From the NCBI RefSeq assembly GCF_009469605.1, contig NZ_SSXU01000024.1, positions 1-54,256 on the forward strand: 54,256 nucleotides of DNA. Reading direction: 5' to 3'. Made by a program: the position numbers and the translations under genes. Positions 51,935 through 54,256 of this stretch are shown here, piece by piece. The first letter of the stretch is position 1. Every line of letters begins with the position of its first letter. The notes beneath the pieces were generated by a model. It searched no databases. It worked only from the letters and a program-made list of their open reading frames with translations, and was not told the origin of the DNA. This stretch comes from Zoogloea sp. 1C4. Lineage in GTDB: Bacteria > Pseudomonadota > Gammaproteobacteria > Burkholderiales > Rhodocyclaceae.

Positions 51935-52828
51935 ATGCACTACGACCTCACCGACCTGCGCCTCTTCGTGGCCATCGCCGAGCTGCGCAACCTCACTCGC
52001 GGCGCCGAGCGGGTGCATCTCGCCCCGTCGTCGGCCAGCCATCGCATCCGCCTGCTGGAAGAATCCATCGGCACCCCGCTGCTGATCCGCGAGGCCCGCG
52101 GGGTCAAGCTCACCCGCGCCGGCGAGGCCCTGCTGCGCCACGCCCGCCAGGTGTTTGCCCAGTTGGAGCAGATGCACGCCGACCTCTCGCCCTTCGCCAA
52201 GGGCGTGAAGGGCCACGTCAATCTGTGGGCCAACACCCACGCCACCCACACCTTCCTGCCCGAGAGCCTGTCGGCCTTTCTACGCAGCCACCCGCAGGTG
52301 AGCATCACGCTGGAAGAACACACCAGCCCCGAGATCGTGATGGCGGTGGCGCGGGGCGAGGTGGAAGTGGGCGTGGTGGCCGATTCGGTCGAGGGCGCCG
52401 AGGTGGTCTGCATCCCCTACCGGGCCGACCGGCTGGTGCTGATCGCCCCGGTGGATCACCCCATCGCCGCGCAGCCCAGCATGGCCTTCGTGGAAGTGCT
52501 CGACCACCCCTTCGTGATGCTCCACGCCGGCTCGGCGATCCACACCTTCACCATGAACGCCGCCGCCGCGCTGGGCAGGCATCTGGAAGTGCGCATCCAG
52601 GTACGCAGCTTCGAGGCCGTTTGCCGGATGGTGGGCGCCGGCGTCGGCCTCGGCATGGTGCCCCGCAGCGCGATCCCCGATGGCCCGGGCCGCGCCGCGC
52701 TGGCCATCCTCGAGCTGGAGGAGCCCTGGGCCCAGCGCGATCTCAAGGTATGCGTGAAGAAGCGCGAGCAGCTCTCGGGCTTTGCGGCGGCGCTGGTGGA
52801 CAGCCTCACCGGCAGCGCGCCGGAATAA
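51935..52828 (+). CDS. LysR-family transcriptional regulator
   Basis: A 297-residue LysR regulator: N-terminal winged HTH (DLRLFVAIAELRNLTRGAER, SASHRIRLLEESIGTPLL) and a two-subdomain effector-binding region (GHVNLWANTHATHTFLPESL ... VGAGVGLGMVPRSAI). Divergent from the EamA transporter, the usual arrangement for regulation of the neighbour. ATG 51935. Confidence 0.93.
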   Translation: MHYDLTDLRLFVAIAELRNLTRGAERVHLAPSSASHRIRLLEESIGTPLLIREARGVKLTRAGEALLRHARQVFAQLEQMHADLSPFAKGVKGHVNLWANTHATHTFLPESLSAFLRSHPQVSITLEEHTSPEIVMAVARGEVEVGVVADSVEGAEVVCIPYRADRLVLIAPVDHPIAAQPSMAFVEVLDHPFVMLHAGSAIHTFTMNAAAALGRHLEVRIQVRSFEAVCRMVGAGVGLGMVPRSAIPDGPGRAALAILELEEPWAQRDLKVCVKKREQLSGFAAALVDSLTGSAPE

Positions 52829-52908
52829 GCCATACGCAAGCCAGCGGCGAGCCACCCGACATCGCTGGTGTATGCTGATGCCGTTTCCACACACAGCATC
52901 CGGATGCC

Positions 52909-53340
52909 ATGGGTCGGCTTGTTCAGCTCATCTACGTCAGCAGCGCCTCGCACCTTCTGGACGAACAGGCGCTGCGCGCCATCCTCGAATCCTCCGTCCG
53001 CCACAACACGCCCCAGGCCGTCACCGGGATGCTGCTGTATGCCAACGGCGCGTTCATGCAGGTGCTCGAAGGCGACGAAGCCGCCGTCGCCGAAACCATG
53101 TCGCGCATCCGCGCCGACCCCCGCCACCACAACATCTACGAGCTGTGCGCCAGCCCGGTGGCCGCCCGCGAGTTTGGCACCTGGAGCATGGGCTTCCGCG
53201 CCCTCACCCCCGCCGACGCCGCCACCTGGCCGGGCTACGCCCAGTTCTTCGAACGCGGCTTTACCGCCAGCGCCCTCACCGGCGCACCCGGGCTGGCGGT
53301 GGAAATGCTGAAGACCTTCGGGGACAAGAACGGGAAATAG
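52909..53340 (+). CDS. BLUF-domain blue-light receptor (copy 2)
   Basis: A 143-residue stand-alone BLUF protein. Key residues Tyr9 (LIYVSSA), Asn33 (VRHNTPQ), Gln51 (AFMQVLEGDE) and Trp-x-Met (TWSMGF) match copy 1 at 6876 at identical positions, although the two are otherwise well diverged. No output domain. A bulged hairpin (53341-53376) follows the stop without a U-tract. The 21-bp repeat array begins about 70 bp downstream. Confidence 0.92.
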   Translation: MGRLVQLIYVSSASHLLDEQALRAILESSVRHNTPQAVTGMLLYANGAFMQVLEGDEAAVAETMSRIRADPRHHNIYELCASPVAAREFGTWSMGFRALTPADAATWPGYAQFFERGFTASALTGAPGLAVEMLKTFGDKNGK

Positions 53341-53410
53341 CGGAAGGACTCGCCCTTTCTGGCAGCGCGAGTTCCGTTCGAGCGGCAACAAACCCGCGGC
53401 GGCTCCAGCA

Positions 53411-53667
53411 GATCAAGTTTTACTTGAACCGGTTCAAATAAACCTTGAATCAATTCAAGTCCGACTTGAACCTGTTCAAATCCGGGATGAAGCCATTCAC
53501 CTTCGGGTTAAACCACTTCAAGTAAACCTTGAACAAGATCAAGTCAGACTTGAACTTGTTCAACCCGGACATGAACCCGTTCAACTCAAACCTGAACCCG
53601 TTTAAATAGAACCTGAAAAACATCAGGTGGAACCTGAACTACATCAAGTTCCACCTGAACCCTTCAA
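53411..53667. repeat. Twelve 21-bp phased dyad repeats
   Basis: Twelve imperfect units begin at 53424, 53445, 53466 and every 21 bp to 53655, with no slippage; a degenerate half unit precedes them (GATCAAGT at 53411-53418). Consensus of the core is yTGAACcnnTTCAAgT followed by 5 variable bases, often ending AC. Units 1, 2, 3 and 7 have perfect 6-bp arms (TTGAAC or TTGAAT with complement) around 2 bp. Junctions can form a second dyad (CAAGT-ccg-ACTTG). The array is visibly AT-richer than its surroundings. Twenty-one bp is two helical turns, and also seven codons: in one register both strands read heptads with Leu/Met and Phe/Ile four and three apart, but with stops (plus: units 1, 5, 9; minus: 53450 and 53639). 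Confidence 0.9.
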
Positions 53668-53799
53668 TGTCCCCACCGGGACCACCCCCATCCACCCGCC
53701 ATTCATTACGACTGGGTGCCGCCGCTCCCCCCTTTGCGCTTGCGAGCCTGTCCGAATTTTTGTGTTTGAGGCATAACGTAGTCCCAGAAAGGAAGGGTT
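53668..53799. other. Gap between repeat array and transposase
   Basis: 132 bp with no gene. GC-rich spacer to about 53743, then the likely left end of the IS256-type element (GAGCCTGTCCGAATTTTTGT from 53744). GGAAGGG lies just before the transposase ATG. Confidence 0.5.
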
Positions 53800-54256
53800 A
53801 TGCCAAGGAAGAAACAGAAGTTACCGCTGCCGCCTGTAGCCGTGTTGCCGGAAGGCGCGCAGCAGTGGCTCGATCAGGTGGTGAAGGGCCCGATGACGGC
53901 GGGGGCGGTCGAGGACGTGATGCGCGGGATCAAGAAAGCCTTGATCGAGCGGGCGCTTCAGGCCGAGCTGAGCCATCACCTGGGCTACGCCGAAGGCGAG
54001 GACAAGCCCGAATCGACCGCCAACCAGCGTAACGGCACGAGCGGCAAGACGGTGCTCACCGACGACGGGCCGCTGCGGATCGACATCCCGCGGGACCGGG
54101 CCGGGCAGTTCGAGCCCCAGCTGATCGGCAAGCACGAACGGCGCTTCACCGGCTTCGACGACAAGATCATCGCCATGTACGCCCGCGGGATGAGCGTGCG
54201 CGAGATCCAGGCGTTTCTGCTGCAGATGTACAACACGGAGGTGTCGCCGGACTTCA
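53744..54256 (+). mobile_element. IS256-family insertion sequence, left part
   Basis: The right-hand window edge lies in an IS256-like element. Its left end is placed at about 53744 because GAGCCTGTCCGAA resembles IS256-family termini, but the border is inferred; the other end is outside the window. Confidence 0.7.
53800..54256 (+). CDS. IS256-family transposase, N-terminal part
   Basis: About 152 residues from ATG 53800 to the window edge, no stop. Typical IS256 (mutator-type) content: VEDVMRGIKKALIERALQAE, LSHHLGYAEGE, RNGTSGKTVLTDDGPLRIDI, PRDRAGQFEPQLIGKHERRF and IIAMYARGMSVREIQAFLLQ, just before the catalytic DDE domain. GGAAGGG precedes the start. Confidence 0.93.
   Translation, partial: MPRKKQKLPLPPVAVLPEGAQQWLDQVVKGPMTAGAVEDVMRGIKKALIERALQAELSHHLGYAEGEDKPESTANQRNGTSGKTVLTDDGPLRIDIPRDRAGQFEPQLIGKHERRFTGFDDKIIAMYARGMSVREIQAFLLQMYNTEVSPDF

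What the first reader, a model, noticed from the sequence alone, without database searches (positions are those of the whole stretch)
53411..53667. Twelve-unit 21-bp phased palindromic repeat array of unknown nature
Twelve units start at exact 21-bp intervals (53424 to 53655) without a single indel, each carrying a TTGAAC/GTTCAA-type dyad, in an AT-rich island of a GC-rich genome. Half-sites alternate in orientation, and 21 bp equals two helical turns, so a protein binding each dyad would line up on one DNA face. This resembles iterons or a cooperative operator array, yet no replication gene is near. There is also a hint of an 84-bp higher-order repeat: unit 1 and unit 5 agree at 17 of 21 bases, and units 1, 5 and 9 share the TAA/TAG position. 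Alternatively it is a decayed heptad-coding repeat, since the register is 7 codons and hydrophobic residues recur at heptad positions on both strands. It sits between a BLUF gene and an IS256 end.
Basis: partly seen in the sequence, partly recalled or inferred. Interest (0 to 1): 0.85.

Follow-up and report, generated by a model that had tools for sequence, protein, structure and literature searches.

The report
Private DNA arrays beside small genes
The repeat array is the DNA partner of a small, unnamed bacterial gene: most copies of this gene family carry their own run of palindromes spaced two helical turns apart, each with its own sequence, and stray copies of such runs sit elsewhere in the genome.

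Summary
The array is real, one of five class-I arrays in this Zoogloea-group genome. It is not an orphan. Beside it, on the minus strand, lie the last codons and stop of a ~155-aa gene cut by an IS256-family insertion (left end 53744; 8-bp duplication shared with the other gene piece on contig C66).

The gene belongs to a multicopy family without a convincing match in Pfam, NCBIfam, PADLOC, PHROGs or PDB. In the genus, 21 is the best repeat lag downstream of 63 of 65 gene copies scored first (9 of 66 upstream) and of 6 of 10 scored last; 35 of 35 protein clusters; outside the genus 20 of 29, one weak.

Paralogs carry different palindromes. The profile of one resident gene's array picks out an orphan array of its class on another contig.

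The arrays look non-coding: ortholog substitutions are equal at all codon positions. I think each protein, or a partner, assembles on its own palindromes on one DNA face. Binding was not tested; what the assembly does is open.

The parts
53403..53675 (.). 21-bp palindromic array, 13 units by profile scan (12 units start 53424-53655, the last damaged); consensus TTGAACnnGTTCAAGTCnGAS, near-identical on both strands
53706..53743 (-). last 11 codons and stop (stop 53706-53708) of the partner gene; its 5' part lies on contig C66 (L242) beyond the insertion
   Evidence: reads KRKGGSGGTQS-stop, like the family's C-terminal tail
53736..53743 (.). 8-bp target site duplication of the IS256-family insertion, shared with L242
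53744..54256 (+). left end of an IS256-family element and its transposase start (53800-), inserted in the partner gene; not part of the system
   Evidence: 81% to the first 152 aa of a full-length copy in L165; L242 carries the other end (77% over aa 370-421)
53676..53705 (.). 30-bp spacer between gene stop and array
   Evidence: spacers at sister loci with class-I-scored arrays run from 9 to 101 bp

Best explanation
Shown: the array is the downstream partner of a small gene of an unnamed multicopy family. Most family genes have their own array of roughly 8-20 units at 21 bp just behind them (estimates run from 4 to 24), usually palindromic, with a sequence that differs between paralogs; arrays of the same class also occur alone in other intergenic places. 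Inferred: the ~155-aa protein (acidic body, basic tail), as a dimer or larger, or a partner specific to it, recognises the palindromes of its own array in double-stranded DNA. Because 21 bp is two turns, neighbours line up on one face and assemble cooperatively into a compact nucleoprotein body over the gene-end array and over the solo arrays. Least certain: the use of that body. I think most likely is a local chromosome organiser or boundary that also keeps the gene-array pair in the genome.
For: Downstream of family genes in the genus, 21 is the best repeat lag in 63 of 65 regions, against 9 of 66 upstream; by protein cluster 35 of 35, upstream 5 of 36, with 594 of 3000 random windows of this genome as background; of the 11 listed copies scored last, 6 of 10 scorable. 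Outside the genus 20 of 29 scorable loci (L316 weak), upstream 5 of 31, of which L297 and L310 are clear arrays. Paralogs carry different palindromes. The class-I profile scores 30 or more in 13 of 15 loci whose protein is at least 66% identical to the first gene, and in 1 of 53 other genes; of the 15, L242 ends at a contig break and its array is the window's. The profile of the array behind the gene on C71 (L265), scanned over 40 twenty-kb stretches (about 0.8 Mb) and 6 other loci of this genome, hits only the orphan array on C107 (148 bits, 13 units). All 12 genomes with strong class-I arrays have the gene, of the other 11 two do (p 6.7e-5 without correction for kinship); a better profile adds a weak match in G002. 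Terminator-like hairpins lie between stop and array in some loci, most clearly L265, L275, L286, L292 and L293. Substitutions at the dyad core are rarer than elsewhere (0.100 against 0.148, p=1e-5, pairs not independent). The C-terminal 22 residues have mean net charge +3.6, the body -5.7.
Against: No binding data and no structure: the prediction job was interrupted and the tool then switched off. The protein matches no DNA-binding family convincingly. Motif similarity by PWM is high only above 80% protein identity (0.75-0.87), about 0.41 at 60-80% and about 0.3 below. The profile of the array on C31 (L236) also hits the C107 orphan (76.6 bits) and the class-I array on C129 (68.9 bits), so classes are not fully separate. 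Some arrays are weak (lag-21 identity 0.40-0.45) and some units hardly palindromic (palindromy below 0.5 in 14 of 46). A divergent branch at about 30% identity mostly lacks arrays. Constraint at the dyad core is modest, and arms of one dyad show no consistent covariation over shuffles. 44 of 49 array loci held have no detectable gene beside them.
Confidence: 0.6

Rival explanations
1. RNA system: the array is transcribed and folds, and the protein binds the RNA.
For: Most arrays fold better than column-shuffled copies (mean z -2.86 over 46 arrays); a few contain long near-perfect hairpins; arrays lie 3' of the gene.
Against: Against shuffles that keep whole units the effect is small (mean z -0.93, -0.20, -0.60). 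The period is 21 bp for many unrelated motifs, which suits B-DNA. Terminator-like hairpins precede some arrays.
Confidence: 0.2
2. Selfish repeat family helped by its gene, as REPINs are by RAYTs; the array is what spreads and the protein spreads or protects it. (This can hold together with the best explanation.)
For: Array class per gene, solo arrays elsewhere, unit blocks replaced between orthologs, patchy spread. Some loci share flanks beyond the array: L153/L157 in one genome, L028-L156-L160 with L032, and a ~280-bp repeat at L149, L150, L155, L161.
Against: No transposase match; no end common to all arrays (by eye); only about 4 to 8 class-I solo arrays located in a genome (capped list).
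Confidence: 0.35
3. Neutral tandem repeats that arise by replication slippage beside an unrelated gene.
For: Unit numbers change in 21-bp steps; some arrays outside the genus are nearly perfect repeats (L357, L362, lag-21 identity 0.96 and 0.95).
Against: The same gene family has them in 35 of 35 clusters, mostly on one side, at one period; neutral repeats do not follow a gene family.
Confidence: 0.05
4. Decayed heptad-coding repeat.
For: Class-I units can be read as L-N-x-F-K-S-D and GC is high at that frame's third positions (by hand from the counts); stops in that frame are somewhat rarer than in column shuffles (23 against 31.9).
Against: Stops in many arrays, equal substitution at codon positions, other classes of different sequence.
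Confidence: 0.02

Closest known systems
REPIN-RAYT (PMC3116915, passages read; PMC3733652, start of abstract seen in a listing)
   Same: A gene with its own class of extragenic palindromes beside it and further copies elsewhere
   Different: RAYT is a transposase; REPs are mostly in doublets (61% in the paper), not arrays at 21 bp; this protein matches no transposase model
TIGR-Tas (PMC12045711, abstract and passages seen)
   Same: Array of units up- or downstream of one gene (most often 5 to 15 in the paper); repeat sequence constant within and different between loci; a branch has palindromic stem-loop units
   Different: Tas has a Nop domain; units give 36-nt guides with two spacers; here the period is 21 bp, with no Nop match
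Iteron and centromere arrays (plasmid iterons, parC bound by ParR; recalled)
   Same: Direct repeats near 20-22 bp bound on one face by a small protein
   Different: Several arrays per genome, downstream of the gene; no replication or ParM-type domain among the 40 flanking proteins scanned, most of them at solo arrays
ArgR boxes (recalled)
   Same: 18-bp palindromes with 3-bp gap, 21 bp centre to centre
   Different: ArgR sites come in pairs in promoters; here about a dozen behind genes; no ArgR match

Membership tests
REPIN-RAYT | Partner gene encodes a REP-associated tyrosine transposase | tested here: not met
   no transposase match for the family proteins
REPIN-RAYT | Cognate palindromes beside the gene and elsewhere in the genome | tested here: met
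   elsewhere shown for class I and for the L265 class only
TIGR-Tas | Nop domain protein | tested here: not met
   27 members against Pfam up to E=1, no Nop among the 15 families listed
TIGR-Tas | Unit long enough for two spacers and two repeats (36-nt guides) | tested here: not met
   period 21 (22 in a few)
TIGR-Tas | Array processed into guide RNAs | not testable with these tools
   no RNA data
Plasmid iteron or centromere | Lies on a plasmid or beside replication/partition genes | tested here: not met
   none among 40 flanking proteins; no plasmid match for the array or the L274 protein; one distant plasmid homolog without a clear array. Neighbours of most family genes were not scanned
Known anti-phage system | Match to a PADLOC model | tested here: not met
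   weak matches only, JetB in 3 of 27 members (best E 0.013) and one other model in 1
IS256-family part | Array always with the IS | tested here: not met
   IS256-family transposase in 5 of 49 array loci; insertion in the gene here

The most novel reading that the evidence does not exclude
A new kind of system: a family of small proteins in which each paralog carries a private DNA address code, an array of its own palindromes two helical turns apart, and builds a nucleoprotein body there and at solo arrays in trans. Paralogs in one cell (eight copies here, one of them cut by the IS) would give several largely non-cross-reacting bodies on one chromosome.
Probability: 0.5. Interest if true: 0.92.

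Novelty: categorically new. Interest (0 to 1): 0.86.

Why it matters
An unnamed protein family comes with dozens of natural, mutually different candidate target arrays, so the specificity code, the role of exact two-turn phasing and the question whether bacteria build several separate chromosomal bodies become directly testable. It would also explain a group of strange intergenic repeats.

Tried and rejected
Exact-pattern scans: the strictest patterns found nothing in named genomes or viral contigs. Rfam over 52800-53810: 14 matches, all below gathering score, mostly microRNA models. Covariation inside units: no consistent excess. Mobile ends common to all arrays: none seen, though some loci share flanks. 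A 47-bp distance to genes in several loci was mostly one orthologous locus. G000 C107, fetched as a presumed empty site of the L171 array, held an array of another class. A blind dyad scan of the 40 stretches (about 0.8 Mb), limited to hits without a long open frame, gave the C118 and C96 arrays and two borderline hits; the C107 array was not among them. The gene context of solo arrays is mixed. Phages and viral contigs gave no homolog. Literature: 10 searches of open papers showed no description in their listings; one search was too unspecific (16,301 papers); subscription papers and preprints were not held. That similar hypothetical proteins occur in further phyla is a recollection I could not test.

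Full report
WHAT IS IN THE WINDOW. The array stands as described: 12 units at 21-bp steps from 53424, a weaker one before them, GC 41.6% in a 68.8% window. The core pattern occurs 13 times, 0.11 expected. Dyads alternate: one centred between unit bases 7 and 8, one on base 18, so the unit reads nearly alike on both strands. The last unit has lost one base inside. The 84-bp echo is supported at about 0.005 (26 of 5000 unit orders).

CLASS-I ARRAYS ELSEWHERE. The same motif forms arrays at C9, C96, C118 and C129. A three-unit sequence model finds them in 15 of 23 genomes of the genus, 12 of them strongly (E below 1e-6); in a sample of 300 genomes of the order, with stricter filters, only the own genome and one weak match. 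Named records matching the looser pattern with real arrays are titled Zoogloea or are SZAS-76. Genes on both sides are of many kinds. Orthologous arrays keep the 21-bp grid while blocks of units are replaced, gained or lost in 21-bp steps. Substitutions in paired orthologous units are equal at all three positions of the possible codon frame and lower in the dyad core (0.100 against 0.148; units with more than 7 differences were dropped).

THE GENE. One neighbour, 158 aa and without a convincing database match, is multicopy: 79 matches listed in 14 of 23 genomes of the genus, 8 in the window's genome. Of 30 of its loci, 21 showed an array by class-I profile or by dyad symmetry alone. I fetched 40 further stretches. 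Of these 70 loci one gave no hit and one gene was present twice; of the 68 genes, 65 had enough DNA downstream. In 63 of these 65 the best repeat lag among 15-29 is 21 (one 18, one 22), upstream in 9 of 66; mean lag-21 identity 0.548 against 0.356. Over 700 bases, L260 and L261 favour 22 bp. The 11 listed matches left out were scored last: 10 had enough DNA; 6 have best lag 21 (0.40 to 0.68), four have 15 or 18, three of these from a divergent branch at about 30% identity. By clusters of 80% protein identity it is 35 of 35 by majority, upstream 5 of 36. Coding DNA has some lag-21 signal: random 450-base stretches of this genome give best lag 21 in 594 of 3000, and at identity 0.46 or more in 136 of 3000; the downstream regions reach that in 53 of 66 (one gene counted twice).

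PALINDROMES DIFFER BETWEEN PARALOGS. Examples: GCCTAAAnTTTAGGC (L282, L291), CGAAnnTTCG (L274, L278), GCAAGC..GCTTGC (L263), GAGCAGC..GCTGCTC (L244), CAGTTCCGAACTG (L265). The class-I profile scores 30 or more in 13 of 15 loci with a protein at least 66% identical to the first gene and in 1 of 53 other genes (L255). By PWM comparison, similarity is high only above 80% identity; Mantel r 0.46, largest of 2000 permutations 0.12, which partly reflects orthologs. Not every array is clearly palindromic: the palindromy score is below 0.5 in 14 of 46.

SOLO ARRAYS BELONG TO RESIDENT CLASSES. The intergenic array at C107 (L184) was found by following a presumed empty site. The profile of the array behind the gene on C71 (L265), scanned over 40 twenty-kb stretches (C96, C107, C118) and six other loci, hits only that array, 148 bits and 13 units (it appears in two held stretches). 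The profile of L236 (C31) hits it too, more weakly (76.6), and also the class-I array at C129 (68.9), so the separation is not clean; profiles of L263 and L282 hit nothing. Three other gene copies of this genome (C51, C75, C107) were not used as profiles. Of 49 array loci held, 5 have a detectable gene in the stretch and 44 have not; the window is among the 44 because only 11 codons remain.

THE WINDOW ARRAY IS A GENE-END ARRAY CUT OFF BY AN IS. On the minus strand, 53743 to 53706 reads the family's basic tail and a stop, 30 bp from the array. At 53744 an IS256-family element begins. On contig C66 (L242) a family gene breaks off at the other end of such an element, with the same 8 bp (GCAAGCGC) at the junction, and the IS pieces match opposite ends of the transposase of a full-length copy in another genome. 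The contigs are not joined in the assembly, so adjacency is inferred, though strongly.

BEYOND THE GENUS. Family proteins: 32 of 395 genomes of the taxonomic family in 4 of 68 genera, 4 of 250 of the order, 5 of 369 of the class, 2 of 398 of the phylum, each count with the own genome; none in phages or viral contigs; one plasmid protein of Candidatus Thiodictyon syntrophicum, 46%. I tested 31 loci outside the genus, not every listed match; 29 had enough DNA downstream. In 20 the best downstream lag is 21 (L316 at 0.44 is too weak to count as an array; the G916 loci are near copies, and some genes are fragments); L356 has 22; upstream it is 21 in 5 of 31, of which L297 and L310 are clear arrays. 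So the pairing is older than the genus, and it is not universal.

HOW IT MAY WORK. Shown: gene-array pairing, period, palindromy of most classes, motif differences, solo arrays. Inferred: binding by the protein, double-stranded DNA as the ligand, cooperative assembly on one face. For DNA rather than RNA speak the constant 21 bp across unrelated motifs and the terminator-like hairpins before some arrays (9 of 46 by a loose scan, of which L240, L243 and L285 look like array units themselves). Folding tests give at most a small excess once units are kept whole. Open: what the assembly does, how solo arrays arise, which residues read the motif.

NOVELTY. By the features tested it is not a REPIN-RAYT, TIGR-Tas, plasmid iteron, centromere or listed defence system, though it resembles the first two in layout. 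No description appeared in ten searches of open papers (listed under Tried and rejected); other literature was not searched.

Noticed in passing
L149, L150, L155, L161: These arrays lie beside a separate ~280-bp repeat; in L150 it stands in inverted orientation on both sides of the array.
   Followed up: partly
window, L153, L165, L167, L168: IS256-family transposase or fragments lie within a few hundred bp of the array in 5 of 49 array loci (two of them orthologous); perhaps a preferred landing area.
   Followed up: partly
L263 and L282, downstream of the array: A REP-like hairpin, GTCGGACTTCAGTCCGAC, follows the arrays.
   Followed up: no
L153 and L157 (G019): Two copies of one array with common flanks at different places of one genome, a possible transposition or duplication.
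   Followed up: partly
L258 (second gene), L366, L367, L252: A divergent branch of the family (about 30% identity) without a downstream 21-bp array where that could be scored.
   Followed up: partly
L145:3278-3706: A class-I array lies next to an Xre/MbcA-type antitoxin gene.
   Followed up: no
L357, L362: Relatives outside the genus have almost perfect 21-bp repeats (0.96, 0.95), perhaps recently made arrays.
   Followed up: no
L171:758-1240: 84-bp higher-order repeat of four units, repeated about four times, like the 84-bp echo in the window; some of its units are not class I.
   Followed up: no
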